DNA of 64,000 nucleotides, taken from Blepharisma japonicum (lineage: Eukaryota; Ciliophora; Heterotrichea; Heterotrichida; Blepharismidae). The stretch is taken from contig CATKHK010000121.1 in the NCBI GenBank assembly GCA_949751835.1, positions 1-64,000 of the forward strand, in the 5' to 3' direction. Of the stretch, positions 11,480 to 57,726 are shown piece by piece. The position numbers and the translations under genes were made by a program. Position 1 is the first letter of the stretch; each line of letters starts with the position of its first letter. The notes below the pieces were generated by a model. It ran no database searches. It was not told the origin of the DNA and saw only the letters and a list, made by a program, of their open reading frames with translations.

Positions 11480-11895
11480 TATAGAAACATCTTGGAAAGA
11501 TAATGCAATTTGCAATTCAATAAATGATTACTTCAAAATAAATAAATTGGTTAGCATTTTTTAAAGTTTTTGAAATTTCTTTGTAAGTTTTGTCGTCTTT
11601 GTATCTGGAGAAGAGTGATCTTCATTTATAAACAAGCAAAAGCAAGGAAAGAATAAAGGTACATAAAAAGTAAGGCAACCCTGCCCTTTTATATAGAGTT
11701 AGACCTTCAAGTCACATCATTAGGTATTGTATAATAAGAATAATGATCACTGGAATCATCAAAATTGATGACCTTGAATCATAAAAATTGAGGACCTTGA
11801 ATTATTATAATAATTCCTATAGCTATCATCAACCTTCTGCTTTGGCTCTTGAAATTGTAAAAATGGGCAGGTCTACAAATTTATTATTAGAAATA
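11480..11895 (-). pseudogene. Decayed Tim44-domain paralogue, copy 4 (5' half)
   Basis: Scattered similarity to the other copies: a region near 11575-11640 resembles the membrane-proximal helix, and 11830-11870 resembles the end of the signal peptide plus the RAGGG segment. No usable frame remains, and the C-terminal domain is missing. Called mainly from position and local base matches. Confidence 0.45.
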
Positions 11896-30097: not shown

Positions 30098-33000
30098 ATG
30101 AAATTTGTGATCTTAAGATTAGTGGTTTTTATCACAATTGCCTCATCAAGGTTTTCAATATATATTCTATTTTGCCAAGAAACAGACCCTGAGCTTTCAC
30201 CTCAGATTTTCAATGACTTAAATGCTTTATATGGTGGCAAAATCGATATTTATCAAGAGAAAGCCAGTAAAGCATCAATTATAGAAAGAAACTATATGCA
30301 ACCTACTATCATTATAGACATTACCAAAAATTTGTTAATGAAACAAATAATTAAAGAGTCTTCAAGTATTTATAAATTTATTGTTATATCGCCTGAAGAC
30401 TTTACTAAAGGCTGCGCTGAATTAGAATATTTTTCTCATATTTCAGTCAATAATCATGCAGAAGCTATGATAAGCATGCTTTCTTATTTAAACTGAAATC
30501 GCTTTGGCATTACTTATAGTGATTCTTCCTATAATATAAATTTTCACAATTATTTCAAGGAAAAATTATTTTTTTATAGTGGGATTGTCCCTTCATCATT
30601 AAACTTAGGAAACGGAATAAGCCAAGATTTAGCTAATAAATTTGCATTGCGTGAAATTAAAGGTAAAGGATTACTAAATCTCATAATTGTAAATGAAGGG
30701 GAAGGAGCACAAAAAATAGTAAGCAGCTTAATATCAGGAAATATGTATAAAAATAATTTTGGCGTGATACTAGGAAGCAAAGCTATATGGGGCCCAAATA
30801 GTGATGGATTAATATTTCTAGTAGAAAAAGGTTTGGAATCGGCTAAAAGCTTAAATCATTATCACTCTCTCAGCATTATAAAACTTTTAAGGAGCATTGA
30901 TATAAATTCTGAGTCAATTTATCTAATAAATGAAAAACTAAGGAATAATACAGTTAACCAAAGCTCAGAAAATTATTTTTCTATCGTAAATGTGCAAAAT
31001 GGGTCTAAAAAAATAGCTGGAGAAATACAGAATAACAAAATAATGCTCTATGATGAATTATATTTCCCAGGAAACACAACAAATGTCCCGAAATCAATAA
31101 AGCCGCCAGTTGTTATATCAGTGGCATCTGGAAATTCAAATTTTAACGGAGTTGTGCTTGGCTCAAACAGCTATATAAAAATCGGTGCATTTTTTGCTAT
31201 GATATATGCTAAATACATCCACTTTTTAGACGACTTTAATTTAAGTTTATACCCAACAGACTGCAGTGCTGATTTTTATTTCAAACCTTTTTCACATAGC
31301 TGCTTATTAAAACAAAAATCAAATTTAGGACTTGCATTTTTGCCTTCTTATAATGATAATGTCTGCTATGGAACTATAAGCGATTTTAGAGCTCTTGGAA
31401 TAAAAATCCCATTAATTTCAGACCAATGCACTAGCGAGATTTTTACCAATAAAACAGCTTACCCTGAATTCGTTAGGATTACAAAAAGTTTTGCATTCCA
31501 TTCAAACACCTTAGCCTACCTTATGAAAATATTTGGCTGAAATTGTGCAATTGTTTTTTATGAAAATTCTACATTTGGCTTAGATATGTATAAATCCTTT
31601 TCCACTGTAGTTAAGAGTTTAGGGATAAAAATAGTCAATGATGAAGACAAAAGAATGCTTGATCCTCTATATGCTCCAGAATTATACGAAAATTATTCTG
31701 ATTATATACAAAATGCTATAAAAACTGAGTGTAAAATAATGGTACCATTGCTGCAGCCGACACCTTTATTTAACCTTTTTGGGCAGTTATATGATGAAGG
31801 TATGAGAGAAGGCGATTTTATTTATTTACTATATTTTCCAATTGTTGGGTATTTTGAGTACTCTCAAGTAATCACAAATAAAACTAGAGAAAACGTTAAA
31901 GAGCTTGCAGCAGGAGCTATAACATTATGGCAGTCTGAATGAGTAGGGAGCTATGGAGCATCTTTAATTGAGATCGGAAATAAATTTTATGGGAGTTTTC
32001 TATATGGAGGAACCTGCACCCCTTTTGACGCAGTCATGCTTGGGCTTCATGGAATAAAATACTTAATTGATACAGGAGAAGATTATGAAGATCCAGGGCT
32101 ATTAAATGAAGGAATCCGAAAAGTAAGGTTTACAGGCTGCTCAGGGACTGTACAAATTTCAAGTAATTCTAATGAAAAAAGCACAGCATTAATTAGCATT
32201 TGAAACGAAGTTTATAATGAAACTCAAAAACGCTTGACAAATGTTGAGGTGGGAAGCTACAGCATAGGAAGAAATCCTGCTTTTGTGTTTACTGCACCTA
32301 TTACTTGGCCAGATAGCTCAGCAACTATACCAAACCAAAAACGATTGAACCCTGATGATTGCCCTTTTAATCTTCATTTAATCCAAGGCTCAGATATTGG
32401 TAAAGCTCTTTATTATGTATTTGTGTGAGGGATTACAATAATTGTGGCTGTTTTATCTATTATTTTCTTAATTAAGTTTTACTGGAAAACAAAACTGCCA
32501 ATGCTTAGAAAAAAATGCGAAATAGCAGTAAATGATCATATTACTATTGTAATGATTTTTATTGATTTTTTACAATATTTAGCTATGGGCCCTGATATTA
32601 GGGCTTATGATAAAATCAGCTCTATTTTATATGATTATGCAGCTGTCAATTTATCTTATCTTATTCGCTTTAAAAATGGAGCTTATTGACTTGCAATTAT
32701 TTTTACCTTTTCAGCATGCTATCTATGACTGCTTTTGTCAGCTTTTATTTACTTAAAAATCTATGAATGAAAAAATAGTGAATGATTTAACAATATAGGT
32801 TTATTTGCTAAATATATAACTCCTATAATTGGAAACTTAGGACTCATCCCGATTACTCATATTCTCCTAACGATTTTCCAATGTGAAAATGGTATAGGAA
32901 ATGAAATAAGTGATGCGTATATGAATCATGACTGCTCAGTTTATTGCTACCAAGGCTATCACATTTTTTATATCGTCTTATCAGTAATAACTCTTTTGAT

Positions 33001-33625
33001 TTATTTACCATTATCTATATTATGCAGACCATTATGGCAGAATATAAGCATCAATACAAATGTTTACTCAAACCCTTCATATCTAGTAGTCAAAAGTATA
33101 TTTCAAATAATTGCAGTCGCCTTAAATAAAACTCTGAAACACTATAGCCAGTCTTTAGAAGGTCTTATATACTTGATATTTTCGATTTTTTTAATTATTT
33201 TTATGATATATCATAAACCTTATAATTACCAAAGATATAATCTCTGGGCGGTTGTCTCATTATTGGCTCTGTCTTGAAGCTTGATTTTATCGTCATTGTA
33301 CTATATAGTTTCTTATTTGGAGTATAAATTTTGAATAATCCTTCAATTTGGAGGGTGGCTAATAATTATTTTGTTGGCCTTGTTTGTTCAATATAAAAAA
33401 TTCCCGAATTTACTTTTCTCAACAAAGGGGGTTGAAATTAGCATTTTCTTTAAATTTGAGTTTACAAAGCAAATAATGCTGGAAGAAGTTATAAAAGAGC
33501 GGTCGAAAGCATATGAAATTTGTATGGATGAAAGCAAAAGTATGAATGAAAGCAAAATTATGGATGAAAGCAAAAGTATGATTGATATAAGTTCTAAGAA
33601 CGATTTAATAGATAGCAATTCATAA
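30098..33625 (+). CDS. Double Venus-flytrap membrane receptor, array gene A
   Basis: A 1175-residue protein. Signal peptide at 1-18. The first periplasmic-binding type I-like domain covers about 20-330. A second covers ~340-740, with the receptor-family line YPEFVRITKSFAFHSNTLAY, then FGWNCAIVFYENSTFG, and the late TPFDAVMLGLHGIKY and RFTGCSGTVQISSNSNEK. About eight membrane spans follow (~768-1100), then a ~75-residue cytosolic tail that here contains a repeated DESKSM-like unit. The frame is single and unbroken; many TGA codons serve as Trp. ANF-receptor-type domains bind amino-acid-like or peptide ligands. Function is inferred from architecture. First of four tandem paralogues. Confidence 0.82.
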
Positions 33626-33927
33626 TAAATGCATTTTAAATTATTTTAAATTTTGATTTATTTAATAACAGATTGAATATTTAAAAATTGCAAAACTTTC
33701 AAGACAGTTTATCAAAAATAAAAATTTATTATTATTATTTCTAAAGTAACTAATTATAATTTTGTGAAAAAAATAGCTGAATGTTTTATATTTCTTAGTT
33801 TTATCAAATATTGGTAAAATCAAAATACCATTTTTTAACCAACTAATTTAATATAGAACTTTCCGACCAGATTTATTTAAAAAACTGCATAAATGGGATT
33901 AGCTCACAAGGTTTTTATATTAATAAC
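33626..33927. other. Intergenic spacer between receptor genes A and B
   Basis: About 300 bp of AT-rich DNA with no supported feature. Confidence 0.35.
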
Positions 33928-36900
33928 ATGCGAATTTTTGTACTTTTTAATTTACTGGCTATCTCTTTGTCAAAGCTCTCAATATACATTCTTCACAGCC
34001 AAGAAACTGACAAGGAATTAATAGCACAAATTTCTAATGATTTAAGCGCATTATATAACAACAAAATTGACCTATTTCAAAATTTTATTGATGAAGCCTC
34101 AGAAATAGGTGCTAGTTACAATACTCCTACAATTGTTATTGACATTACAAAAAATTTATTTATAAAGCAAAAAATTAAAGACTCAGCCACAATTTTTAAT
34201 TTTATAATTATAACAATTGATGGGCAAACTGAAAGTTTTTGTGAGTGAGAGTTTTTTTCTCATATATCTTTCAGAAACCATGTTAAATCAATGATAGCTT
34301 TGTTATCATTTTTAAGTTGAAATAAAATTGGAGTTATTTACAGTGATACTCCATATAATTTAAAATTTCGAAATTATTTTGAAGAAGAATTGCTGCTAGG
34401 GGGAAATATTGAATTTTTCTCAATAGAGTTTGGAAATTGATTAAGCCAAGATTTAGCTGATAATTTAATATCAAGAGAAATAAAATCTAAAGGATTGAAT
34501 AAGATTTTAGTCTTGAATGAGGGTGAAGGAGCTGAAAAGATAATGCAGAGCTTTTTATCAAAAAATATGTATAAAGATGGCTTTGGGGCAATATTTGATG
34601 GGAAAGCTATATGGGGCCCAAATAATGATGGATTAGTATTTATTACTGAGGAAGGCACTGAATATGCTTTAAGCATAAATCATTATCACTCATTAAGTAT
34701 TATTAGCCTATTGCATAATATTGATATAGATTCTGAATCAATTTTCGCAATAAAGGAGAATATTAAAAATTCCACAGCAAACCGATTTTCTATTGTGAAC
34801 GTTCAGGAAAAAATTAAAAAAAATATTGGGTATATAGAAAATAATATAGTTTCAATTAAAAATCGTATTTTGTTTCCTGGGAACAGTTCAAGTAAGCCAG
34901 AATCAAAAAAACCTTCAATAGCTTTATCAATTGCCTCTGGAAATACAAATTTTAATGGCCATTATCTTTATTATAATAGTTATTACAAAATTGGTGCATT
35001 TTTTGCTATGGATTACGTGAAATATATTCATTTTTTAGACAATTTTGATTTAAGTTTATATGAAACAGACTGTAGTTCTGATTATTATGATCATAATTTT
35101 TCATATAATTGCTTATTAAAACAAAAATCAAAATTAGGTGTTGCGTTTCTACCTACTTATAATGATAATGTTTGCTATGGAACTATAAATGATTTTAGGG
35201 AGCTTGGGTTAAAAATTCCATTAATTTCAGATCAATGCACCAGTGAAATTTTTACCAATAAAACATCCTATCCAGAATTCGTCAGAATTATGAAAAGCTA
35301 CGCTTTTCATTCAAACACCTTAGCATATCTTATGAGTATTTTTAACTGAAAATGCGCAATTGTTTTCTATGAAAATTCAACATTTGGATTAGATATGTAT
35401 AAATCTTTTTCAAGTGTAGCAAAAAGTTTAGGAATTGAAATAGTTAATGATGAGGATAAAAGAATGTTGGATCCTTTATATGCTCCAGATATATATGAAA
35501 ATTATTCCAATTATATTAAAAATGCTATAAATACCCAATGCAAAATAATCATCCCATTAATGCAGCCAACTGCTATGTTCAATCTTTTCGGACAATTATA
35601 CGATGAAGGGATAAGACTAAATGATTTAATTTATTTATTATATTTACCAATAGTTGGATTCTTTGAATTCGCCCAAGCCATTACCGAAAAAACAAGATCC
35701 AGCATAAAAGATCTCTTAAATGGGTCAATAGCACTCTGGCAATCAGAATGAGTCGGAAGTTATGGAAATGCTCTTAATGATATAAGTAATCGTTTGTATG
35801 GAAAAAATGCCTATGGAGGAACTTGCCCCTCTTTTGATGCAGTGATGCTTGGTCTGCATGGAATAAAATATTTAATTGATGCTGGAGAAGACTATGAGGA
35901 TCCTCAGCTTTTAAATGATGGAATAAGAAAGTTAAAATTCACAGGGTGTTCAGGGACTGTACACATTTCAAGTAATTCTAATGAGAAAAGCATGGCATTT
36001 ATCAGTATATGAAATCAATATTTTAATAAAACTCTTGGATACTATCAAAGAACCATTGTAGGAAGCCATATTATAGGAGGAAATCCACCTTTTTCGTTTA
36101 TTAAAAATATTACTTGGCCTGATAATACGTATAAAATTCCAGGCGATAAAAGGCTGAACCCTGATAATTGTCCGTTTAATCTTCATTTAATACAAAACTC
36201 AGATGCTAGCTTCGGCTTATATTATGGATTTGTGTTTACAACTGCATTTATAGTAGTCACTTTATCTTCTATTATTTTAGTTAAAATTTATTTAAAAGCA
36301 CAGCTACCAATGATGGTGGAAAAAAGCCAAATAATGGTCCATGATTATATTATAATGGCCATGATCCTTGTAGATTTTTTTCAATATTTGGCTATGGGGC
36401 CTGACATAAGCGAATTTAACCGCATAGTCTCATTTTTATATGATTATGCATCAGTTAACTTGTCAGTTCTGATTAATTTCAAAGGCAGTCCTTATTGGAT
36501 TGCTATGATCACCACTTTCTCAATTTGTTATTTATGGCTATTTTTTTCGTTATTTATTTACTTAAAAATTGATAAATGAAAAAATATTGGAATTTTCAGC
36601 AGCATTGGTGCGTTTGCAAAATTTATAACACCACTTATTGGGAATTTAGGATTTATTCCAATAGCCCATATTCTCCTTACAATTTTTCAATGTGAAAAAG
36701 GAATAGGTAGCAGATTAAGTGAAAGCTTTATGAATCATGATTGCTCTGTCTTTTGCTATAAAGGTTCACATATTTTCTTTGTGATTTTATCAGTGATAAC
36801 GCTTTTGATTTATTTGCCTTTATCTATATTATGCAGGCCTTTATGGCAAAATTTAAATTCCAATGCAAATATTTATTCAAATCCTCCATTTTTAGTTGCT

Positions 36901-37410
36901 AAAAGCATTTTTCAAATTATTGCAGTAGTAATAAATAAAACACTAAAGAGCTATAGTCAATTTTTAGCTGGGTGCATATATTTAATATTTGTACTTATTT
37001 TTATTTTTTACACAAATTATAGAAAACCATATAACTACCATAGATGCAACTTATGGACACTCATTTCATTGGTGTCGTTATCATGAAGCTTAATTGTGAG
37101 CTCAATTTATTATTTAGCTGTTTTCCCTACAGACTATAAATTTTGAATTATATTGCAATTTGGAGGATGGTTGGCATTAATTATAATCGGCCTTATAATT
37201 CAATGACAAAAATTTCCTAGCCTCCTTTATTCTGTAAAAGGTATTGAAATCAGTATTTTCTTTAAATTTGCATTAACGAATCAAGTTGTGCTAGGTGAAG
37301 TTATAAAGAAGAGAAGATCTATTGACTATGAAGTAGAAGATGAAAAATTCGCAGTCGATATTAATTCCAAAAACGAACTTATAGATAGTAGAATTGTTAT
37401 GAGTAATTAA
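33928..37410 (+). CDS. Double Venus-flytrap membrane receptor, array gene B
   Basis: A 1160-residue paralogue of gene A with the same order: signal peptide (RIFVLFNLLAISLS), N-terminal binding domain, second binding domain (YPEFVRIMKSYAFHSNTLAY, CPSFDAVMLGLHGIKYLIDA, FTGCSGTVHISSNSNEKS), eight likely membrane spans and a short tail (RRSIDYEVEDEK-type). The membrane part includes MNHDCSVFCYKGSHIFFVI, with the conserved C-S-V-x-C-Y line shared by all copies. TGA reads as Trp throughout, including the Trp of FNWKCAIVFYEN and WQSEWVGSYG. No internal stop. Confidence 0.82.
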
Positions 37411-38288
37411 AATAAATTATTTTAATAAATACTATCTATAAATGGCATATTCGCTTTATATAAAGAAGCAAAGAGTCGTTTGATAAAAATTCTGCTTATT
37501 AGCATAAAAGTTTGATACTATTGAATTTAAAATTTTGATAAATTATTATTAATCCAAAAGCAATTATTACTCTTTTTTTACACTTTTTGCTATCCATATA
37601 ATATGGCTTTTTTAATTAATTTAATTGAAAATATGAATATTTAATTAGTTTTCCCTAAATCTTAAGAAGGAATATTTTTAATATTTTATATTATAAATTC
37701 AAATAAGAGCTCAATAAACTATTATGAGAAATATTTTATGAGTACTTTATTCGCTTTAATAAAATTCAAAAAGCAGAAAAAGCTATTTTAATAATAGGCT
37801 GCTTTGAATTATAACGAAAATATTTGCTCTAAAACAATATTTGATTATTCTTCCGCAATAATATCAATTCCATCTTCTTTATTTATAATTTATCTTCGAG
37901 CCCGTCAAAAATTAAGAGTTTTTTTTCTTTTCCATTTTGCATTGAAATTAGGTGTAAAAGATGTGAAAAATAACTAGCCTGAGTAAAGGATAATATATAA
38001 ATTATTACATCAAAAATACTTAAAATTGACTACAAGCTATTTGATTGAAATTTTGATAGCGTAATACTTATTTTTAAAAAATTTGCTAGAAAATATTCAG
38101 TTAGCGTGCCAATTTTTAAGATATACCATAAAGCTCAAAAGAAATGCCACATAATCAAAAAATTTCAACAAATATTTTATAGATAGTGTACTTAAGTTTT
38201 TAATTTTTATACTGAAGTCAATAATTATGATTTCGTCAGACACAATTAATAGCAGTAAGTTTAATTTTGGTGTTGTAATATTAAAAAT
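37411..38288. other. Intergenic spacer between receptor genes B and C, 0.9 kb
   Basis: The longest gap within the receptor array. AT-rich, no frame, no recognisable receptor relic. Confidence 0.4.
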
Positions 38289-41200
38289 ATGATTTTTTGG
38301 ACGTTGATGCTCATGAATTCCTTTCTTCTGGCCTCTTCAAAACTCTCTTTGCATATTATTCACGATGTAGAAGCCGACCAAGAATTGCTCTCCCAGGTCT
38401 TTAATGATTTAAATATATTATATCTAGACAAAATTGATCTATTTCAAGACTTCATTGATGAAAATTCAGAAATAGGCAAAAATTATACAAATCCAACGAT
38501 TGTAATTGATGCAACAAAAATATTATTAATAAAGCAAAAAATCAAAGAATCAGCTAGAATCTTTAATTTTGTCCACATAAAAATTTATGAACAATTTGAA
38601 AGTTCTGATCAGTGGGAGTTTTTTTCCCATGTTCCTACTTTTAATCATGCTCAAGCTATGTCAAGTATGCTTTCATTTTTAGGTTGAAATAAAATTGGGT
38701 TGATATACAGCAATTCATTTCAAAATGTTCAATTTCGTGATGATTTTGAGGAAGTACTGACATTTAATAGTGATATTAGTTTTATATTAAGAGGATTTGG
38801 GAATTGGCTAAGTCAAGGATCATCTGATAATTTAATTTCAAGAGAAATCAAAGCAAAAGGGGTAAATAATATTATAATATCTAACGAAGGCGAAGGGGCT
38901 CAAAAATTAGTAAAGAGTTTTGTATCAAAAAATATGTATAAGGATGGATTTGGGGTAATACTTGGAAGTGAGGCCATATGAGGCCCAAATAATGATGGGC
39001 TGATATTTATTGTAGAAAAAGGTTTGGAAAATGCTAAAAATTTAAATCATTACCATTCCTTAAGCATCATTAATCTTTTGAGCAGTATTAATATCAACTC
39101 AGATTCAATTTATATAATAAAAGAGAAACTTTGAAATTCCACAGTTGGCCAGCATCCTTTAAATTCATTTTCTATAGTGAATGTTCAAGAGAAAGCCAAA
39201 AAAATTGTTGGCTATATACAAAATAATACAGTCAGCCTTACTGAGCAAATAATATTTCCTGGAAACAGCACAAATATCCCAAAATCTTTAAAGCCACCGA
39301 TTGTGATATCAATTGCATCTGGAGATAAAAACTTTAATGGAGTTGTTCTCGGCTCGAATAGCTATTTTAAAATTGGTTCATTTTTTGCCTTGATGTACGC
39401 AAAGCACATTCACTTTTTGGACGATTTTAATTTAAGTTTGTATCCTACAGATTGCAGCGCTGATTTTTACTTCCACCCTTTTTCATATAATTGTCTATTA
39501 AGGCAGAAATCAAATTTGGGTGTCGCATTTCTCCCTTCTTATAATGATAACGTTTGTTATGGGACTATAAGCGATTTAAGGACTCTTGGAATAAAAATTC
39601 CATTAGTTTCAGACCAATGTACAAGTGAATTTTTTACCAATAAAACAGCTTATCCAGAATTTGTTAGGATTATGAAAAGTTTTGCATTTCATTCGAATAC
39701 TTTAGCATATCTTATGAGGATTTTTAATTGGGATTGTGCAGTTGTATTTTATGAAAATTCAACTTTTGGCTTGAATATATATAAATCCTTTTTTAGTATT
39801 GCAAGCAGCTTAGGAATAAAAATAGTTAATGATGAGAACAAAAGGATGCTGGATCCGTTATATGGTCCAGATTTGTATCAAAATTACACTGAGTACATGA
39901 AAAATGCTATAAAAACTCAATGCAAAATAATTGTTCCTTTATTAGAGGGTAATTCTATTTTTAACTTATTTGGGCAGTTGCATGATGAAGGTATAAAATT
40001 AGGAGATTTTATTTATTTATTATATTATCCAATTGCAGGATTTTTTGAACACTCACAAGGGATCACTAATAAGACAAGAGCAAATGTTAAAGAATTGGCA
40101 CATGGTTCATTTGGGCTCTGGCAATCTGAATGAGTCGGGAGTTATGGAAATTCATTAATTGCACTAGGAAACAAATTCTATGGATATTTTATGTATGGCG
40201 GAACGTGCCCTGCTTTTGATGCAATGATGCTAACAATTAATGGAATAAAGTATTTAATTGATGCTGGAGAAGATTATGAAGATCCTTACTTATTAAATGC
40301 AGGTTTACGAAAGGTAAAATTCGTGGGATGCTCAGGGACTGTACAAATTTCAAGTAACTCTAATGAAAAAAGTTCAGCAATAATCAGCATAATGAACGAA
40401 ATTTACAACGAAACACTTGGACATTATTTAAATCTAGAAGTCGGAACTTATAGTATTGGGAATAATCCACCTTTTGTATTCACAAAAAATATTATTTGGC
40501 CGGATAACACTCAAAATATTCCAGGAGAAAAAAGACTGAACCCTGATAACTGCCCCTTTAACTTGCATTTAATCCAAGATTCAGATTTTGGCTACGGCTT
40601 ATATTATGGATTTGTTTTTGTGACAGCTTTTATAGTTGTTGCTTTATCAACTATAATGTTAGTGAAATTATATTGAAATTCCCAGCTACCAATGATCACT
40701 GGTAAAAGTGAAATAACAGCCCACAATTATATTATAATGGCAATGATTCTTATTGATTTTTTGCAGTATTTAGCAATGGGTCCTGATATTAGCGCATTTG
40801 ATCAAGTTACTTCTTTCTTATATGATTATGCAGCAGTCAACTTATCAGTTCTCATTAATTTTAAGGGTGATCCCTATTGAATAGCTATTTCAGTAACTTT
40901 TTCTATTTGCTACTTATGGCTATTTTTATCTTTGTTTATTTACTTTAAACTTCATGAATGAAAAAATATTGATTTATTTGATAATATTGGGATTTTTGCA
41001 AAATTTATAACTCCAATTATAGGGAACTTAGGATTCATCCCAATAACCCATATTCTCCTCACAATTTTTCAATGTGAAAAAGGAATAGGAAGCAGATTAA
41101 GTGAAAGTTTTATGAATCATGACTGCTCAGTTTTTTGCTATGAAGATGAACATATATTCTTTGTAATTTTATCGGTGATTACTCTTTTGATTTATTTGCC

Positions 41201-41795
41201 TTTATCTATAGTATGTAGACCTTGCTGGCAAAGTATAGATATTAATGCAAATGTGTATGCAAACCCTTCATTTTTAGTTGCCAAAAGTATTTTTCAAATT
41301 ATTACAGTCGCTTTAAACAAAACATTGAAAAAATACAGTCAATCTTTCGATGGAGGGGTTTATTTTATATTTGTCATATTTTTTATATTTTTTGTGACGT
41401 ATAAAAAGCCATTTAATTACAATAGATGCAATCTATGGACAACGATGTCATTATTAGCCTTAGCATGGAGCTTAATTTTGTCCTCCGTTTATTATTCAGT
41501 TGGCCACTCAGACTATAAAGTTTGGATGATACTACAATTTGGAGGGTGAATAATAATTGCTGTAATTGGCATATTTGTCCAAAGAAAAAAATACCCAAGC
41601 TTACTTTATTCAGTTAAAGGGACTGAAATCAGCATTTTCTTTAAATTTGCATTCACAAAGCAAGTTATGCTTGAACAAGTTATGAAGAAGCAGATTAGAG
41701 CCTATGAGGTTTATGATTCCGACCAAGAAAAAAATTCAAGCGATATGAATTCGAAATATCAGTTTATCGATAGTCAATTTGTTTTAAGCATTTAA
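38289..41795 (+). CDS. Double Venus-flytrap membrane receptor, array gene C
   Basis: A 1168-residue paralogue with signal peptide IFWTLMLMNSFLLAS, two binding domains and eight spans. The second binding domain is very like that of gene A (CSADFYFHPFSYNCLL and SNLGVAFLPSYNDNVCYG occur almost unchanged), while the N-terminal domain is closer to gene B. This mixed similarity suggests exchange between copies. The Trp in WGPNNDG is TGA here but TGG in genes A and B, showing that the two codons are interchangeable. The tail ends SKYQFIDSQFVLSI. The frame is unbroken to TAA at 41793-41795. Confidence 0.82.
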
Positions 41796-42294
41796 ATTAT
41801 AATTTTTAAATAATTTTAGATATATATTTATTTGCTATTAAAAAAATAAATTTCAAACGAATAAATGATGAAAAGAATAGCTATATACAGATATAAGATT
41901 TAGTACATATTTAAGGGAGGCTAATAATTAATAATTATCCTCTTGCAAATATCATGATGTTTCAATTACTATAAATTTGAATCAAAAATCAGAGAAAGAA
42001 CCTCTGCCAAAAATCTTAATTTTTTAGCTATTACAATAAAATTCCCTCTGCATGCATTAAGAAAATTTGAGTCTTTTAATTATTTTTTTTGAAATCAATT
42101 TCTTGATATAATTATTTTTTTATTAAATTAAATGGACTAAGAGTTTTGGCTTTATCCTTGCAGAATAAAGATTAATCTGCATAGAGTTAATTTCACTTTT
42201 TAGGATCAGATTTGGCATATGCCTCCTTCTAGTTAATCATAATATTTTGAGCCAATAATCACATAGGCAGGTCTGATCTAATAATATAAGCATT
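41796..42294. other. Intergenic spacer between receptor genes C and D
   Basis: About 500 bp, AT-rich, no supported feature. Confidence 0.35.
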
Positions 42295-45200
42295 ATGAGA
42301 TTTTTTAAACTTGAGTGGCTTTTTTATTTTTGTTTTGTTGCATCAAAACTGTCTATACGAATTTTTTACAGTAATGAAACTGACAGAGGACTTACAGACC
42401 AGATTTATAATGATTTAAATGCGACTTACAGAGAAAATATTGAATTATATCAAGATTATGCTGATATAGTTACACTTACAGGCTGAAGCTATGTAGACCC
42501 AACCATAGTAATTGATTTAACCAAAAATTTATTATTGAAGCAAAAAATTAAAGATTTCTCAAGAATTCATAATTTTATTGTCTTAGAAATCACTGAACGA
42601 TTAGAAAATAACGATAGATGAATATACAGTAGTCATATTTCTACCAGTAATCATGCAATAGCAATGATGAAAATACTTTCATATTTAGGCTGGAGCAGAA
42701 TTGGGCTTATTTGTAGTGATTCTTATGAAAATATAAATTTTTGCAATCAAATTGAAACAAAATCATTTTTTTATAATGGTGGAAATGTTTTATCAAGAAA
42801 TTTTGGAAACTGGCTAGATCAAGATATAGCCGATAATTTAATAGCACGGGAAATTAAGGCAAAAGGATTAAATAATATTATAATTGCTAATGAAGGTGAA
42901 GGCGCAATAAAACTTATAAAAAGCCTTATTGGTAAAAATGTGTATAAAGATGGCTTTGGAGTAATACTTGGGAGTCAAGCTATATGAGGCCCAAGAGAGA
43001 ACGGGCTAGTATTTATAGTTGAAAAAGATATAGAACCTTCTGAGAGTATGAATCATTATCATTCACTCAGTATTATCAAACTTTTAAACAGTATTATTAT
43101 TAGCTCAGATTCAATATATTCCATAAAAGAGCAGCTTGATAAATTCACATTAAATCATGAACCTCCAAACATCTTTTCAATTGTAAACATCCAAAACAGC
43201 ACAAGAAAAATTGTTGGCTACATAGAAAATTTTTCAATCACCCTTACTGATACAATAATTTTTCCTGGAAGCACCTCAGAAATTCCAAATTCAGCAAAAC
43301 CAAAAATCACTATATCAGAGGCATCCGGAGATACAAATTATAATGGCCTTATTCTTGGTGCAAATGGTTTTTTCAAAATAGGTGCTGATTTTGCTTTGAA
43401 ATATTCAACTATAAATCATTATATTGAAGATTTTAACATAATTTTACATTCCACAGATTGCAGTGCCGATTTTTACGACCATAATTTTTCATATACCTGC
43501 TTTTCTAATGAAAAATCAAACATCGGGATTGCCTTTTTACCATCTTACAGTGATGATGTGTGCTATGGGACAGTCAATGATTTTAGAGAACTTGGAATAA
43601 AAGTCCCATTAATTTCAGATCAATGCACAAGTGATATTTTTACCAATAAAACTGCATATCCAGAATTCATTCGAATTATGAAAAGCTACGCTTTTCATTC
43701 AAACACATTGGCATACCTTATGAGCATTTTTAGCTGAAAATGCACTGTTGTCTTCTATGAAAACTCAACATTTGGGCTAGTCATGTATGATCATTTCACT
43801 GAAATAGCTAACAGTTTAGGGATAAAAATTGTTAACGATGAAAATAAAAGGATGCTAGATCCTTTATACAGTCCAGAAATGTATGAAAATTATGATGATT
43901 ATATTAGTAATGCTATAAATACTAAATGCAGAATTATAGTTCCTCTATTACAGCCTACTGCTGTATTTAACCTTTTTGGACAATTATATGATAAAGGCAT
44001 AACACTGGACGATTTTATTTATTTATTATATTTTCCTGTTGCTGGATATTTTGAATATTCACCTTCAATTACAGAGGAGACTAAACAAAAAGTAATTAAA
44101 CTTGCATATGGCGCATTAGGATTATGGCAATCTGAGTGAGTAGGTAGCTATGGAGCCAAGCTAAAAGCATTAGGTGACACTTTTTATGATCCTTCTTGAT
44201 ATGGAGGAAATTGCCCTTCATTTGATGCTATGTCCCTCGTTCTTCATGGCTTAAAATATATAATTGATGGAGGAGGTGATTATGAAGATCCAGAATTACT
44301 AAATGAAGGGATACGAAAAGTAAAATTTACAGGATGCTCAGGAACGGTTCAGATTTCAAGTAATTCCAATGAAAAAAATACAGCACTTATAAGTATAATG
44401 AATGCTGTATATAATAAAACTCTTGGGCATTATGTAAATATCAAAGTTGGTAGCTACACAGTAGGGAGTAATCCTCCATTTTTATTTACAAATAATATCA
44501 CCTGGCCTGATAATACTACAAATACTCCAAACGAGAAAAGACTAAATCCTGATAATTGCCCATTTAATCTTCATCTAATTCAGGATTCAGATGCTGGAAT
44601 TGGCTTATATTATGTCTTTGTATTTGGAATCACATTTATTGTTGTAATTTTATCCGCTATAATTTTAATCAAATTATATTGGCATTCATACTTGCCAATT
44701 ATAATACAAAGATGTGAAGTAAAAGCTAATGATTATGTAGCCATGGCCATGATTTTCATTGATTTTTTACAGTACTTAGCGATGGGGCCTGACCTTAGCG
44801 TTTATGATGAAATAAGTTCGTTTTTATATGACTATGCAGCAATTAATTTATCAGATCTTATCGAGTTTAAAGGTGACACTTATTGAATTGCAATTATCAT
44901 GACTTTTTCAATTTGTATTTTATGGGTATTTTTATCTATGTTTGTCTATTTCAGATTTGATGAATATAAAAATATTGATATATTAGACAGCATAGGGATT
45001 TTTGGGAAATTTATCACTCCTATAATAGGAAATTTAGGATTAATCCCTATAACTCATATTCTTCTGACAATTTTTAAGTGTGAAAAAGGAATCGGAAATA
45101 AAATAGATGAGAGCTTTATGGATCATGACTGCTCTGTTTTTTGTTATAAAGACGAACACATTTTTTTTGCGATTTTATCAGCCTTGACATTGCTTATTTA

Positions 45201-45792
45201 TTTACCATTATCTATAATGTGAAGACCAATATGGCAAAGCATTAATTCAAATACAAATATTAATTTAAGTCCACAGTTTTTAGTATCAAAAAGTATTTTT
45301 CAAATAATTTCGGTAGCTTTGAATAAGACTTTAAAGCCTTACAATCAAGCTTTAGAAGGTCTAATTTATTTGATATTTACTTTTGCTTTTATTTACTATA
45401 CATTATATCATAAGCCTTACAATTATCAAAGATGCAGTCTCTGGACGATTGCATCTTTAGTGGCTTTAGCATGGAGCTTAATTGTCTCCTCATTTTATTA
45501 TGCACTTTCTTATTCTTACATCCCATTTTGGATTATTGTTCAATTTGCTGGATGAGTCGTAATTTTATTTACTACTTTACTGATTCAGCATGAAAAATAT
45601 CCAAGCCTATTTTTTTCACCAAAAGGAGCCGATATAAATATTCTTTTTAAATTTGCATTAACAAAACAAATTATGATTGAAGATATACATAAACAAGCGA
45701 AAGCATATGAGATTAATGATTCAGCTCTAAAAAGTGATAATGAAGTAGATTCAAAATTTGGCTTAATAGATAGCAATTCTTTATTTACTTAA
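42295..45792 (+). CDS. Double Venus-flytrap membrane receptor, array gene D
   Basis: A 1165-residue paralogue, the most diverged of the four. Signal peptide RFFKLEWLFYFCFVAS, then the N-terminal binding domain (KILSYLGWSRIGLICSDSYE), the second binding domain (YPEFIRIMKSYAFHSNTLAY, FTGCSGTVQISSNSNEKN) and eight spans (first VFGITFIVVILSAIILIKLY). The loop MDHDCSVFCYKDEHIFF is retained. Ligand-facing loops of the second domain differ most from genes A-C (for example YIEDFNIILHSTDCSAD). The frame ends at TAA 45790-45792. Ligand specificity may differ from the other copies; this is an inference. Confidence 0.82.
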
Positions 45793-45929: not shown

Positions 45930-46262
45930 ACCTAAATAAAGATGAGCAAATTTTTTTGGATTTTGTCATTTTTAACTCTACTTATTTATTTGCCGTTTTC
46001 TATAATGTGGAGACCTATTTGACAAAATATTAATTCAAATACAAATATTTTTTAAGTCCACAGCTCTTAGTATCGAAAAGTATTTTTCAAATAATTTCAG
46101 TCGCTTTAAATAAAACTCTAAAGCATTATGACCAACCTTTAGAGGGATTTGTTTATTTGGTTGTTACATTGATTTTTATTACTTATACGCTGTATCACAA
46201 TTATAATTACCATAGATGCAACCTATTGACGACAATTTCTTTACTTTGTTTAGTATGAAGCT
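45930..46262 (+). pseudogene. Receptor relic, membrane part (fifth copy, piece 1)
   Basis: Clear similarity to the membrane region of the receptors, from the span before LLIYLPFSIMWRPI through LVSKSIFQIISVALNKTLKH to the next-to-last span (RCNLL-TTISLLCLVW). The frame is interrupted several times, and the binding domains and start are missing. Homology ends near 46262, just before the coiled-coil gene on the opposite strand. Confidence 0.85.
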
Positions 46263-46305
46263 TAATGCTATATCATAAAAATAAATAGTTTTAAACGATG
46301 ATTTA

Positions 46306-46890
46306 TTAAATTTCTTTTTCTTCAGCTTTATGTATCAAAAACCAGCTTAAAATAGAAATAAGGCTAATAAATCCCATTAATACATAAACCCACATAAAAT
46401 TAGATTCTCTAGCTAAAATAACTTCTAAATATTCAGTCTGTTCTTTTACCTTCAGAATTGAATTTTTCACTTGATTATCCTGTGTTGCAAGCCCATTCAG
46501 CCCAATTTCAATTTTTTCAATAATTTTCTGAAAATCCAGTGTTTTAATCCTGTTGTCAACTTTTTCAATTCTTTCTTCAAGTTTTCCTAAAGAAAGCATA
46601 ATTTCATTCGCATAAGTTTTATTAAACTCTTTATGTCCTTTTGTCATTTCTTCTGTGGTTTTTTCTAATACACTTAAGGACTGGTCTGTTCTTAGCATGT
46701 CATCTTTAAGCTTGTTTACTTGTATATTAAGTGATTTTAGATAAGTTTCTGATGTAAGCTCATTGACTTTGTGGAGAATGTCCTCGATTTCATGGAGTTT
46801 CTTTTCAAGCTCAGTGTGTTGAGAAATTAATGAGGTGATTTCTTGACTGAGGCAGAGTGTCGTGAGAGCTAATAAAAGAAGCTTGATCAT
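46306..46890 (-). CDS. Type I membrane coiled-coil protein, copy 1
   Basis: A 194-residue protein. Signal peptide at 1-16 (MIKLLLLALTTLCLSQ), then a long coiled coil (~20-155; KLHEIEDILHKVNELTSE and ERIEKVDNRIKTLDFQKIIE), one membrane span near 165-186 (FMWVYVLMGFISLISILSWF) and a short charged tail. No enzymatic domain. This shape fits an assembly or trafficking partner, or the stalk of a surface complex. Its neighbour on the same strand is the first seven-span gene, and both were duplicated together (second copy at 49345-51079), which suggests a functional pair. Family unknown. Confidence 0.72.
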   Translation of the reverse strand: MIKLLLLALTTLCLSQEITSLISQHTELEKKLHEIEDILHKVNELTSETYLKSLNIQVNKLKDDMLRTDQSLSVLEKTTEEMTKGHKEFNKTYANEIMLSLGKLEERIEKVDNRIKTLDFQKIIEKIEIGLNGLATQDNQVKNSILKVKEQTEYLEVILARESNFMWVYVLMGFISLISILSWFLIHKAEEKEI

Positions 46891-47105
46891 ATTTATAAAA
46901 TGGAATTATTTATCAAATAATTTAATTTACTCTATATTTAAATAATTATTATGAGTTTGATGAATCAGTTTAATTATATTCATTAATTCTTTAAAATGAA
47001 TCAGCACATTCAGCTAGTTTATCATGCAATTAATAATATTGGAATACAAAAATATCAATTTTTATAGAGATCAAGGCTTTATATATATTAATTTAAATTA
47101 GACTA

Positions 47106-48044
47106 TTATCTCATTATCCAGCAAATTAATAATGAAATATCATAAATCATATCAAACATAAAAAACATAGCAAAAATATTTAGGGCAGCATAATCAATAT
47201 ATCTGCTATGCGAAAATCCAAATCTTATCAGCAATAAGTAGCCAAGCGGAAAGGAAAGCATATTCAAGCCCATTCGTACAAGATATGGAGAATTCTTCAA
47301 AAGTGATTTGTCATAAAATACTGTAAAAGCTCAATTATATCTTGTATAAAATAGAAATGTTTTGCCTCATAATTTTGCAAGGCTTGTTATATCAGAGACC
47401 AGCCAGTCATCAAGAAAATTTTTGGAAAATTTTATAAAATCATGGGCACTCGAAACTTGAGCCAAAAATATTTTTGCAATTAGAGCACCAATGCCACCAG
47501 CGCCTGTAATAATCACGCTTCAAATTACCAATAAAAATATAACTGAAATAACAGCATGGAGAATTCAGTCTCCATAGGAATAAACCTCTGCTATAATGAG
47601 TATCAGAATAAGCATAACATAAAGATAAAAGGAGTATTTTTCAGTCTCCAAAATTACTTTTAGAAAGTAACAAACTATTGAAATGCAAAAGATTATGTAA
47701 GCTCAAAGTAGTAAATATAAAGGTAAAAGTGTGCTGTAAATAAAGATTTCTTTAATCAGAATTTGATAAAAAATAACCCAAATCAGAATGTATATGCTTA
47801 AAAAGAGTGGTCATTTTTGAGTTATATTGAACTTCACAACTTTGTGACTGAATCTATCAAAAATATTGAGAAATTCAGCTGCATATAATAAAGATCGAAA
47901 ATAAAGTTGAAACTCTATGGAAATTTGTTGCTCTCTTTGTGAAGAAAAGAAGTAAAAAAGCGTAGGTTCTAATAGAATTCTTAAGATCATAAGTATAGGA
48001 GTGACAATCATTTTCGAATCTTCACTGATTTTAAGTCTGTTCAT
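47106..48044 (-). CDS. Seven-span membrane protein, copy Y1
   Basis: A 312-residue protein with about seven hydrophobic segments (near residues 12-32, 78-97, 103-128, 133-155, 165-200, 260-285, 290-310). Shared motifs are the start MNRLKISEDSKMIVTPI, SSAHDFIKFSKNFLDDWL in a cytosolic or luminal loop, and LLLIRFGFSHSRY before the last span. Numerous TGA codons are Trp. Four intact or near-intact copies lie on this strand. I do not recognise the family; it does not look like a transporter signature I know. The seven spans would permit a receptor topology, but nothing shows it. Confidence 0.72.
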
Positions 48045-48167
48045 TTACAATTTTTATTAAGAATTAATTAATTGCTTATAAAATCTTAATAATTTGCTTC
48101 AAGCTATTTTTTGGTATTCAATTTCCTAAAAACATTTAAACTCAAATATATCAGCACACATTTTTAA

Positions 48168-48416
48168 GTGAAATTATTAGTATTAACATTTATAATAAAG
48201 ATTGAATTCATAAGATCTTTGTGGGATGACTCTATAATCACTGGAAAAAGAAAGCATAATCATCCAATGCATCCATATCTGTTACCCTGAAATGACTCAT
48301 ATATGTCGGCTACATTTTCCGCATGGACCAAAGGACTCTATAAGATTTTTCGTAAATCTTCTAATATCCGAAGTTACGATTGTGGAACACAACGCTATAC
48401 CTATTAAGGCACAAAA
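48168..48416 (+). other. Unassigned open stretch with coding-like composition
   Basis: One frame is open for about 80 codons with TGA as Trp, without an early ATG. The second half (WDDSIITGKRKHNHPMHPYL ... SATFSAWTKGLYKIFRKSSN) has the amino-acid variety of real protein rather than AT-rich noise. It is not part of either neighbouring family. It may be a fragment of a lost gene or a lone exon. Confidence 0.3.
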
Positions 48417-49009: not shown

Positions 49010-49134
49010 TAATTATAGCAGGTCTCAAAGGGATTATTTAAGCCCTCTCCGCCCGACCGACAGCTCCAGGCTTGATAATGGCCCTAGTTAGTCAATGTCA
49101 CGCTCTTTTCATGTTGATGCTACCAATTTCTTAA
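49010..49134. other. GC-richer island of unknown nature
   Basis: Around 49040-49110 the sequence is far richer in G and C than its surroundings (for example CCCTCTCCGCCCGACCGACA). It holds no long frame and does not fold into a tRNA by eye. It directly precedes the receptor-tail relic. Confidence 0.3.
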
Positions 49135-49295
49135 TATTAACACCCTTTTTAAATTTGCATTAACGAAGCAAGTAATGCTAGAATAAGTCATAAAAAAGCA
49201 ATCACATGCTTATGAAATATATGATGGGAGTATTGAAAGTCATATAAATTCAAAAAATATATTATTGAGTAATAATATAAGCAATTCAATAATTT
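49135..49295 (+). pseudogene. Receptor relic, C-terminal tail (fifth copy, piece 2)
   Basis: Similar to the cytosolic tail of the array receptors (FKFALTKQVMLE ... KKQSHAYEIYD), with an internal TAA. It is separated from piece 1 (45930-46262) by the coiled-coil and seven-span genes and ~1 kb of other DNA, so the fifth receptor copy appears split by that material. Confidence 0.75.
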
Positions 49296-49344
49296 ATTTA
49301 ATCATTCTTATCATAAAAAATAAATAGTTTTAAACGATGATTTG

Positions 49345-49928
49345 TTAAATTTCTTTTTCTTCAGCTTTATGTATCAAAAACTAGCTTAAAATAGAAATAA
49401 GGCTAATAAATCCTATTAATACATAAACCCACATAAAATTAGATTCTCTGGCTAAAATAACTTCTAAATATTCAGTCTGTTCTTTTACCTTCAGAATTAA
49501 ATTTTTCACTTGATTATCCTGCGTTGCAAGCCCATTCAGCCCAATTTCAATTTTTTCAATAATTTTCTGAAAATCCAGTGTTTTAATCCTATTGTCAACT
49601 TTTTCAATTCTTTCTTCAAATTTTCCTAAAGAAAGCATAGATTCATTCGCATAAGTTTTATTAAACTCTTTATGTCCTTTTGTCATTTCTTCTGTGGTTT
49701 TTTCTAATACACTTAAGGATTGGTCTGTTCTTAGCATGTCATCTTTAAGCTTGTTTACTTGTATATTAAGTGATTTTAGATAAGTTCCGATGTAAGTTCA
49801 TTGACTTTGTGGAGAATGTCCTCGATTTCATGGAGTTTCTTTTCAAGCTCAGTGTGTTGAGAAATTAATGAGGTGATTTCTTGACTGAGGCAGAGTGTCG
49901 CGAGAGCTAATAAAAGAAGCCTGATCAT
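49345..49928 (-). pseudogene. Type I membrane coiled-coil protein, broken copy 2
   Basis: Nearly identical to the gene at 46306 but one base shorter overall (584 against 585 nt). A base is missing around 49788 in the early coiled coil, shifting the frame. Near the 3' end the Trp codon TGG of ILSWFLI has become TAG (49381-49383). Two independent lesions make this a pseudogene. The signal peptide (IRLLLLALATLCLSQ) is unchanged in type. Confidence 0.85.
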
Positions 49929-50152
49929 ATTTATAAAATGGAATTATTTATCAAATAATTTAATTTACTCTATATTTAAAAAATTATTATGAATTTGATG
50001 TATCAGTTTAATTATATTCATTAATTCTTTAGAATGAATCAACGCATTCAGCTAGTTTATCATAATTAATAATATTGGAATACAAAAATATCAATTTTTT
50101 ATAGAGATCAAGGCTTTATATATTAATTTTAGTTAGACTATTATCTCATTAT

Positions 50153-51079
50153 CTAGCAAATTAATAATGAAATATGATAAATCATCTCAAACATAAACAT
50201 CATAGCAAAAAAATTAAGGCCAGCATAATTAGTATATTTGCTATGCGAAAATCCAAATCTTATCAGCAATAAGTAGCCAAGCGGAATGGAAATCATAATC
50301 AAGCCACATTCTACAAGATATGGAGCTTTCTTCAAAAATGATATGTCATAAATCACTATAAACACTCAATTAAATCTTGCAAAAAACATAAATATTTTGC
50401 CATATAATTCTGCAAGACCTTTCATATCAGATAATAACCAGTCATCAAGAAAATTTTTGGAAAATTTTATAAAATCATGGACACTCGAAATTTGAGCCAA
50501 AAATATTTTTGCAATTAGAGCACCAATGCCACTAGCACCTGTAATAATCACGCTTCAAATTCCATGTAAAGATATAATTGAAATAGCAGCATCTAAAATT
50601 CAGCCTCCAAGGGAATAAACCTCTGTTATAATGAGCATCAGAATAAGTATTGTATAAAAATAAAAGGAATATTTTTCAGTCTCGAAAACTACTTTTAGAA
50701 AGTAACAAACTATTGAAAGATAAAAGATTATGTAAGCTCAAAGTAGTAAATATAAAGGTAAAAGTGCACTGTAAATAAAGATATCTTTAATCAAAATTTG
50801 ATAAAAAATAACCCAAATAAGAATGTATATGCTTAGAAAGAGTGGTCATTTTTGAGTTATATTGAACTTCACAACTTTGTGACTGAATCTATCATAAATA
50901 TTGAGAAATTCAGCCGCATATAATAAAGATCGAAAACAAAGTTGAAACTCTATGGAAATTTGTTGCTCTCTTTGTGAAGAAAATAAGTAAAAAAGCGTAG
51001 GCTCTAATAGAATTCTTAAGATCGTAAGTATAGGAGTTACAATCATTTGCGAACCTTCACTGATTTTAAGTCTGTTCAT
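50153..51079 (-). CDS. Seven-span membrane protein, copy Y2
   Basis: A 308-residue close paralogue of Y1. It starts MNRLKISEGSQMIVTPIL and keeps HDFIKFSKNFLDDWL and LLLIRFGFSHSKY. It ends four residues earlier than Y1 because TGG has become TAG in the last span (ISLLIC-stop, where Y1 has ICWIMR), which probably does not harm it. The frame is otherwise unbroken with TGA as Trp. Confidence 0.7.
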
Positions 51080-51182
51080 TTACAATCTTTATTAAGAATT
51101 AATTACTTGCTTATAAAATCTTAATAATTTGCTTCAAGCTATTTTTTGGTATTCAATTTCCTAAAAACATTTAAATTAAATA

Positions 51183-51793
51183 TATAAAATCATGATTACT
51201 TGAAAATTGTGCGAAAAATATTTTTAAAAATTAGGCACCGATGCTTGTAGCACCTGTAATAATCGTAGCTGATATTCCAAGTCAAAATAAAGCAAAAACA
51301 CAAATTTAGGAATCCATCAAGAATATAGGGAAACTTCTTCCAAAATGAGCAAAAATGCAATTAAAGCATAAAGATAAAATGAAAACTTTTCTGTTTCAAA
51401 GAGTTCTTTTAAAAAGAATCCTACTAATAAAAGTAAAAAAATTATATATACCCAAAACTGCATATATAAAGGTGAAGTGGTACCGAGCGCCAAAACATTT
51501 TCAATCAGATTTGAGCTCAAGCCAGGATGTATATGCATAGAAGGTATGAAAGTTTTTCAGATATTTTGAAGATTACAAATTTGTGATTAAATGATTGAGA
51601 AATTCAGTTGCATATAATAAAGATTGGAAAAAAATTTGAAACTCTATTGAAATCTTTGCTGTCTCCGCAAAGGAAATATATAGCATAGCGTAGGTTCTTA
51701 ATATAAGTCCTAAGATTGAGAGTATGGGATTAATAACCATTTGTGAATGCTCACTGACTCTGAGTCTGTTCAGTCTGTTCTTATCAAATAGTT
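51183..51793 (-). pseudogene. Seven-span membrane protein, decayed copy Y3
   Basis: The 5' part reads NRLRVSEHSQMVINPILSIL and IEFQIFFQSLLYATEFLN in one frame. The middle part (FLKELFETEKFSFYLYALIA) lies in another, and the C-terminal third found in the other copies is missing. Clearly a dead member of the array, closest to Y4 in the middle part. Confidence 0.8.
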
Positions 51794-52627: not shown

Positions 52628-53566
52628 TTACCCTAAAAATAATGATAAGCAATGATAAATCATCTCTGACATAAATACCATTGCAAAGGCATTTAGTGCA
52701 AGGTATAAATCATATCTACTATGTGAAAATCCATCTCTTATTAGCAGTAGAAAGGCAAGTGGAACAGCAAATATATCTAAATATAATTCTATAAGTAAAG
52801 GACTTTTAAGAAAAATTGCTATCTCAAAATTTCCCATGAATAGCCAATTAGTTTTTGCAAGCGTTTTAAATACCTCATTCAATAATTTTGCAAGACCTTT
52901 TGTGTCAGATGCCAGCCAGTCATCAATAAATTTTTTTGAAGCATTTATAAAATCATGAGTACTTGAAAATTGTGCAAAAAATATTTTTGCAAATTGAGCT
53001 GCGACATAAATAGCACTTGCAATAATTGCACTCCATATACCAAGTCAAAATAAAAAATAAATAATAAAGTAAACTACTCACCATGAATATATAGAAACTT
53101 CTTTTATAATGAGCATAAATACAAATAATGCATAAAGATAAAGTGAAAATTTTTCTGTCTCAAAGAGTTCTTTTAAAAAGCAGCCTAATAATGAAAGTAA
53201 AAAGATTGCATATGCCCAAGCCAATATATATAAAGGCCAAATGGCACTGAACTCCAAAATGTTTTTAATCAGAATCTGATAAAAAATAGCTCAAACCAGG
53301 ATGTAGATACTTAAAAAGTATGTAAATTTTTTAGTTATGTTGAAATTCACAAATTTGTGGCTGTAAATATCAAAGAGGTTGAGAAATTCAGTTGCATGCA
53401 ATAATGATTGGAAACAAATTTGAAACTCTATTGGAAATTGTTGCTGCCTTTTAAAAGAAAATAGATAAAATAGTCCAGGCTCTAATATAATTCTCAGGAC
53501 TATCAGTATGGGAGTAATAAGAACTTTCGAGCGTTCACTGATCCTAAATCTTCTCAGTCTATACAT
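52628..53566 (-). CDS. Seven-span membrane protein, copy Y4
   Basis: A 312-residue member of the Y family, the most diverged intact one. It starts MYRLRRFRISERSKVLITPI, keeps SSTHDFINASKKFIDDWL and FLLLIRDGFSHSRYDLY, and has the same seven hydrophobic segments. TGA is Trp at several points, including the VYSW/SIYSW-type position before span 5. The same length as Y1 and the absence of breaks argue for selection. Not preceded by a coiled-coil gene. Confidence 0.72.
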
Positions 53567-53690: not shown

Positions 53691-54617
53691 TTATGAAATT
53701 AATATTAAAACATAATATATCATCTCAGACATAAAAAACATAGCAAAAATATTTAAGCACACATAATCATCATATCTACTATGAGAAAATCCATGTCTTA
53801 TCAGCAATAAGTGGCCAAGTGGAAAAGAAAGCATATTTAAGCAAAGTTCTACAAAGGATGGAGCATTCTTCAAAATTGATTTGTCATAAATTCCTGTAAA
53901 CACTCAATTAAATTTTGTAATCAGTAAAAATGTGTGGCCTAATAATTTTGTAAGGCCTTTTATATCAAAGACCAGCAAGTCATCAAGAAATTTTTTCGAA
54001 AATTTTATAAAATCATGGACACTCGAAACTTGAGCCAAAAATAGTTTGACAATTTGAGCGCCAATTCCAGCAGCTCCTGCAATTAATACACTTCAAAGTC
54101 CATTTGTAAATATAAGTGCGATAAAAATATGAAAAATTCATCCTCCAAAGGAATAAACCTCTGTCATAATGAATATCAGTATAAGTATAGCATAAAGATA
54201 AAAGGAATATTTTTCGGTCTCAGAAACTACTTTTAGAAAGCAGCTTATTATTGAAAGATAAAAGATTATGTAAACTCAAAGTAGTAAATATAAAGGTAAA
54301 AGTGTGCTATAAACAAAGATCTCTTTAATCAGGATTTGATAAAAAATAACCCAAATAAGAATGTATATGCCTAGAAAGAGTGGGCATTTTTGAGTTATAT
54401 TGAACTTCACAACTTTTTGACTGAATCTATCAAAAATATTGAGAAATTCAGCTCCATATAATAAAGACCGGAAACTAAATTGAAACTCAATAGGAATCCC
54501 TTGCTGTCCTTGAAAAGAAAATAAGTAAGAGAGTGTAGGTTCTAATAGAATTCTTAAGATCATAAGTATAGGAGTGACAATCATTTTCGAATCTTCACTG
54601 ATTTTAAGTCTGTTCAT
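53691..54617 (-). CDS. Seven-span membrane protein, copy Y5
   Basis: A 308-residue member, closest to Y1/Y2 at the N-terminus (MNRLKISEDSKMIVTPILMI is identical to Y1). It keeps SSVHDFIKFSKKFLDDLL and HLLLIRHGFSHSRY. The frame is open further upstream, but 54617 matches the other starts. It is the last member on the right; 420 bp of featureless DNA follow. Function unknown, as for the other copies. Confidence 0.72.
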
Positions 54618-55040
54618 TACAAATTTATTAAAACTTAATCCAAAAAAGATATAAAATATCATGCACATATAAAGTTAAAAATTCACAAAATAGCAATTTT
54701 TTTGCCTCATGGACTATTCATGAATTAGACAATTTGACGTATTAAGATGATAATTTTCTGCAAATATTAAAAACTCTATTAATATATAATTGGCTAAAAA
54801 TAGACATGCTTTAATTAATCTATTTTAATTTTGTAGTAGCTCATATCAAAATGCAGCATTAATAAGCGAGCAAGCTTATTAAATTTTATTTTTTAAATAC
54901 AAAACGAATTTTCACTCTAAAAATTATAGATCCCAGAGGTATTAACGATAATATGCTAGAGGGTACAGCTTAGTAAATTATTTATCTTATAACCCTGAAA
55001 ATTTATAATAGCAATAACATACCAACTTGAAAATAATAAA
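54618..55040. other. Non-coding spacer, divergent promoters
   Basis: AT-rich DNA between the last seven-span gene and the mitochondrial-type gene. Nothing further is visible. Confidence 0.35.
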
Positions 55041-57718: not shown

Positions 57719-57726
57719 ATTTTTAT

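What the first reader, a model, noticed from the sequence alone, without database searches (positions are those of the whole stretch)
30098..45792. Tandem array of four intact double Venus-flytrap membrane receptors
Seen: four ~1165-residue genes in a row on one strand, each with a signal peptide, two regions with the features of periplasmic-binding type I (ANF-receptor) domains, and about eight spans. The second binding domain carries the class C line YPEFVRIMKSYAFHSNTLAY and the late GCSGTV motif. The first has its own ALS-LGW-IGL-SDS pattern. Two flytraps in series ahead of a membrane module is not the usual class C layout (one flytrap). Inference: a lineage-specific sensory receptor family.
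Basis: partly seen in the sequence, partly recalled or inferred. Interest (0 to 1): 0.8.

Follow-up and report, generated by a model that had tools for sequence, protein, structure and literature searches.

The report
Ciliate double-flytrap nine-helix receptor family
Four intact neighbouring genes in a single-celled ciliate encode cell-surface proteins that carry two ligand-trapping domains in a row on a nine-helix membrane part of unknown type; they belong to a family of well over a hundred related genes that probably serve the cell as chemical sensors.

The parts
30098..33625 (+). receptor gene 1 (P0001, 1175 aa): VFT1 30152-31084, VFT2 31100-32341, nine-helix module 32399-33472
33928..37410 (+). 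receptor gene 2 (P0002, 1160 aa): VFT1 33973-34893, VFT2 34906-36150, module 36214-37284
38289..41795 (+). receptor gene 3 (P0003, 1168 aa): VFT1 38340-39278, VFT2 39291-40532, module 40590-41663; structure predicted
42295..45792 (+). receptor gene 4 (P0004, 1165 aa): VFT1 42346-43284, VFT2 43297-44538, module 44596-45669
45936..46290 (+). relic of a fifth receptor gene: part of the membrane module in two frames, 77% nt identity to gene 4
49131..49357 (+). fragment resembling the 3' tail of the receptor genes (64-70% nt identity)

Best explanation
The four genes are a tandem group within a large heterotrich-ciliate family of cell-surface chemoreceptors. Shown by sequence or model: two type I flytrap domains in series, a short linker with Cys-Pro-Phe and no cysteine-rich domain, a nine-helix membrane module and a tail of about 64-74 residues. 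Inferred: the membrane-proximal flytrap (VFT2; better conserved, eight cysteines at matching positions in all four proteins) binds a small, possibly amino-acid-like ligand. The outer flytrap (VFT1; shorter, no shared cysteine, least conserved) tunes specificity or pairs receptors. Closure of VFT2 pulls on the linker and helix 1. The module then changes membrane permeability, or calls in a cytosolic partner that is not a heterotrimeric G protein. I think a ligand-gated ion-conducting module is the likeliest output (about 0.35); a new non-ionic coupling module comes next. The confidence below is for the anatomy plus chemoreception, not for the ionic output.
Against: No ligand, expression or localisation data. 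In the window proteins only one of two amino-acid contact positions is Ser/Thr (Thr kept, the other Asp; both in 0 of 4), against both in 1 of 9 (P0005-P0014) and 17 of 32 (P0016-P0062) relatives in A3 (residue roles recalled, alignment uncertain). Nothing tested shows a pore. BLASTP of the two halves of gene 3 is weak (E 0.004), and my VFT1 profile hits in register in only 55 of 74 relatives. The full model is of middling quality (pLDDT 71.4, pTM 0.52). RGS domains (8 matches) and 7tm_3-like genes (3 matches, 1 over the cut-off) exist in this genome. Two PF00503 rows on C42 pass the cut-off when neighbours are summed; read, they look like two separate Arf-type GTPases (motif recalled). A G-alpha missing from the assembly is not excluded.
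Confidence: 0.68

Rival explanations
1. Highly divergent class C GPCRs: the nine helices are a seven-helix class C bundle plus two extra, and they signal through G proteins.
For: VFT2 of relative P0016 matches a GABA-B chain (E 2.4e-13) in one stretch running through the linker into helix 1, the helix part at low posterior. No cysteine-rich domain, as in GABA-B (PMC12716839, passage). By inferred topology the Cys-rich loop between helices 4 and 5 is outside, as in class C (recalled). hhalign of two 7tm_3-like genes of this genome against the module gave E 0.0011 over 133 columns in one direction, though probability only 20.8%. RGS domains are present.
Against: 7tm_3 is not among the 8 families listed for 18 modules at E<=10; 0 PDB sequence hits at E<=10 for the module profile; best Foldseek E 0.33 and no class C chain among the 50 listed (no exclusion); hhalign in the other direction 0.6% (low power); only GTPase-core fragments for G-alpha.
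Confidence: 0.14
2. Nutrient transceptors: flytrap proteins fused to a transporter-like nine-helix module for uptake of amino acids or similar.
For: Solute-binding proteins of amino-acid transporters are among the best fold matches to VFT2. The Foldseek list for the module holds many transporters, but at E 0.3 and worse, i.e. noise.
Against: Over a hundred diverging, largely clustered copies with a variable outer domain suit a receptor repertoire better than transport. No transporter family matched the modules beyond chance.
Confidence: 0.12
3. Some members, perhaps this array, are receptors for the Blepharisma mating pheromones (gamone 1, a glycoprotein; gamone 2, a tryptophan derivative).
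For: Gamone 2 is a small tryptophan derivative (PMC9942806, passage), a kind of molecule flytraps can bind: a CaSR-L-Trp structure is listed. Gamone 1 receptors are called putative in PMC10892320 (passages).
Against: No expression or binding evidence. Stentor shares the family, and a large repertoire suits general chemosensing. This array has no distinguishing mark.
Confidence: 0.08

Closest known systems
Class C GPCRs (GABA-B, mGlu, CaSR, T1R)
   Same: type I flytrap ectodomain of the same fold; GABA-B-like short linker without a cysteine-rich domain
   Different: two flytraps instead of one; nine-helix module without detected 7tm_3 similarity; only GTPase-core fragments found for G-alpha in the genome
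Trypanosoma brucei receptor adenylate cyclases
   Same: two flytraps in series outside a membrane anchor in a single-celled eukaryote, multigene family (PMC6027212, passages only)
   Different: one transmembrane span and a cytosolic cyclase there; nine helices and only a short tail here
Plant glutamate receptor-like channels (GLR3.4)
   Same: best PDB sequence match of relative P0016, in its VFT2 (E 3.6e-15)
   Different: GLRs have one type I flytrap plus a type II ligand domain and an iGluR pore (recalled); no ion-channel family matched the module
B. stoltei and Stentor coeruleus 'Receptor ligand binding region domain-containing' proteins
   Different: one of those four (P0008, 833 aa) is cut short in the module; names are automatic; no description of the family among the papers listed by 10 searches

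Membership tests
type I periplasmic-binding / ANF_receptor (VFT2) | Pfam PF01094 above cut-off and PBP-I fold | tested here: met
type I periplasmic-binding / ANF_receptor (VFT1) | second copy of the same domain in the N-terminal third | tested here: met
   VFT1 vs VFT2 profile probability 98.9; Pfam alone above cut-off in 1 of 3 tested; strand-helix pattern in the model; separate fold search not run
class C GPCR | 7tm_3 (PF00003) membrane domain by sequence | tested here: not met
   absent from the 8 families listed for 18 modules at E<=10; 0 PDB sequence hits
class C GPCR | seven-helix bundle fold | tested here: inconclusive
   nine long helices predicted; no class C chain among the 50 rows each of Foldseek and VIA, which excludes nothing
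class C GPCR | coupling to a heterotrimeric G protein | not testable with these tools
   only indirect: GTPase-core fragments, no fuller G-alpha among 38 scored candidates (C42 rows read)
two-flytrap receptor adenylate cyclase | single span and cytosolic cyclase | tested here: not met
   nine helices and a tail of about 64-74 aa; no cyclase among the Pfam families listed for 4 proteins

The most novel reading that the evidence does not exclude
Heterotrich ciliates sense chemicals through their own receptor superfamily: tandem flytraps on a nine-helix transducer that is unrelated to GPCRs and works without heterotrimeric G proteins, probably as a ligand-gated conductance. The family has expanded to well over a hundred genes and includes the long-sought gamone receptors.
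Probability: 0.2. Interest if true: 0.9.

Novelty: new variant of a known kind. Interest (0 to 1): 0.7.

Why it matters
A genome-wide survey that used 7TM_3 as its Pfam criterion for class C concluded that ciliates lack such receptors (PMC9960496, passages). Here is a flytrap receptor family of well over a hundred genes that such a screen would be expected to miss, on a membrane module for which I found no known relative. It offers a concrete candidate pool for ciliate chemosensing and for the unidentified Blepharisma pheromone receptors, and a possibly new way to pass a flytrap signal through a membrane.

Tried and rejected
Table 11 and ciliate code 6 (TAA/TAG=Gln) gave no long ORFs over the array; code 4 fits. 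Other codes that read TGA as an amino acid were not tried; Trp rests on the B. stoltei paper and on Trp positions such as the flytrap 'GW' motif.

A profile search with A2 added one new relative (P0014). hhalign of the module against two 7tm_3-like genes of the same genome gave 0.6% one way and 20.8% (E 0.0011, 133 columns) the other; I count it as negative but weak, as that profile holds two sequences. The three 7tm_3-like matches are separate genes: L049 and L050 are about 430 aa, and RGS matches lie beside two of the three places. My VFT and module profiles gave no hit at 1e-3 in L049 or L050.

Copy number is a lower bound. The genome tool scored 102-125 of 237-296 candidates in each domain search. 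The union used all 103 places, all 114 (recounted), but only 10 of 119 and 10 of 114, those that looked new. It counts places, some partial or broken (stops TAA/TAG in C77, C143, C145, C160 and C93 rows). 87 of 125 VFT1 places have a module in register; 38 do not. 64 of 106 ANF places had no scored module beside them; 9 of these 64 were read (L001-L008, L010) and 9 of 9 carry one.

Dropped rows: 7 truncated proteins of 63 (P0008, P0015, P0043, P0051, P0054, P0057, P0063); P0018 from the VFT1 profile; A3 used 45 of 63 proteins; 4 of the 14 fragments printed were not used in A4.

Annotated record collections (search_dna_similar), RNA-family tools, metagenome, viral and GTDB contig scans and the Foldseek 'viral' library were not used.

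Full report
WHAT IS THERE. The window belongs to a 45.2-Mb, 224-contig assembly. Four ORFs of 1160-1175 codons stand open when TGA is read as an amino acid; each has 8-11 in-frame TGA, and they are broken under table 11 and code 6. The nearest named relatives are Blepharisma stoltei proteins, up to 89% identical to gene 3, so this is probably a Blepharisma other than the sequenced B. stoltei strain. A MMETSP product (P0043) is 100% identical to relative L001 over 65% of the module query; that this data set is B. japonicum is recalled, not read. The genes lie at 30098-33625, 33928-37410, 38289-41795 and 42295-45792, all on the + strand. Downstream are a relic of a fifth (45936-46290) and a tail fragment (49131-49357).

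FAMILY SIZE. Domain searches of the own genome gave 106 ANF, 103 module and 125 VFT1 matches, each scoring only part of 237-276 candidates. The union of module places is 163 in 49 contigs, a lower bound that includes some partial or broken copies; 124 of 163 have another within 12 kb (all rows selected rows each). Of the 103 module places, 63 have a VFT1 match in register upstream, median gap 1303 nt. Eight stretches fetched whole each hold VFT1, VFT2 and module in one open frame, 8 of 8. Among the 10 best ANF loci VFT2 plus module occur in 10 of 10 and VFT1 is hit in 9 of 10. In 26 loci around module hits VFT2 precedes the module in frame in 26 of 26 (25 open, one stop in L027), and VFT1 shows at the locus edge in 21 of 26. 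B. stoltei has 25,711 predicted genes (PMC9942806, passage), so this is of the order of 1% of genes if the two species are alike.

EVOLUTION. Between the array and three B. stoltei orthologues VFT1 is 81.1-84.3% identical, VFT2 90.4-94.0%, module 84.6-92.5%; VFT1 is lowest in 3 of 3, once only by 0.3 points. Among the four paralogues VFT1 has the lowest identity and highest dN in 6 of 6 pairs. dN/dS is 0.12-0.34 everywhere, rough because synonymous sites are near saturation; in one pair (genes 1 and 3) the module's ratio is marginally the highest. All three domains look constrained; the outer flytrap varies most.

HOW IT MAY WORK. Flytrap closure passed to a membrane module is the known logic of class C GPCRs and is proposed for trypanosome receptor cyclases. 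Here the module is not 7tm_3 by sequence. The genome's PF00503 matches all cover only the GTPase core (19 matches, best single 37.0 bits, cut-off 48.8); two rows on C42 that pass the cut-off with their neighbours look like separate Arf-type GTPases when read. RGS domains occur (8 matches), so G-protein signalling is not ruled out. I favour a transducer that needs no heterotrimeric G protein, most likely a ligand-gated conductance in an excitable cell; that step is inference. The amino-acid contact pair (recalled from LivJ and mGlu1) is complete in 17 of 32 relatives P0016-P0062, 1 of 9 of P0005-P0014 and 0 of 4 window proteins, which keep only the Thr. The array may bind something other than a plain amino acid.

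LITERATURE. PMC9960496 (passages): no family C or D GPCRs in the ciliates surveyed, S. coeruleus among them, with 7TM_3 as the Pfam criterion for family C; its passages give both 24 and 27 species. PMC6027212 (passages): most T. brucei receptor cyclases carry two flytraps. PMC9942806 and PMC9942856 do not contain the word 'receptor' in the held main text. PMC10892320 (passages) speaks of putative gamone 1 receptors. In ten searches I saw titles and starts of abstracts and no description of this family among those listed; subscription papers, including the Stentor genome paper, were not available.

Searches were made to check the report.

VERDICT. Observation confirmed; interpretation right in its core, enlarged in scope and corrected on the membrane part.

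Noticed in passing
46271-48198 and 49309-51230: A 1.9-kb direct duplication, 92.7% identical, next to the receptor array; it covers a coiled-coil-like gene (194 aa, shorter in the second copy) and a roughly 310-aa multi-span gene.
   Followed up: partly
47106-48044, 50153-51079, 52628-53566, 53691-54668 (-): Tandem family of four proteins of 308-325 aa with several hydrophobic spans and no Pfam family at E<=0.01.
   Followed up: partly
L049, L050 and G000:C81:97858-98616: Three 7tm_3-like matches (one over the cut-off); L049 and L050 are about 430-aa genes, and RGS matches lie beside the C25 (L050) and C81 places: 7TM-RGS type proteins in a genome where only GTPase-core fragments matched G-alpha.
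   Followed up: partly
8935-11493 (-): Tandem copies of small genes with a signal-like N-terminus and a Ser-rich stretch, about 78% nt identity.
   Followed up: no
11932-13149 (-): Class I/II aminotransferase (Pfam 1.1e-65).
   Followed up: no
57685-59691 (+): Acyl-CoA oxidase (four Pfam domains).
   Followed up: no
L045 5503-5986: Fragment of a receptor membrane module in two frames downstream of an intact gene: another receptor relic.
   Followed up: no
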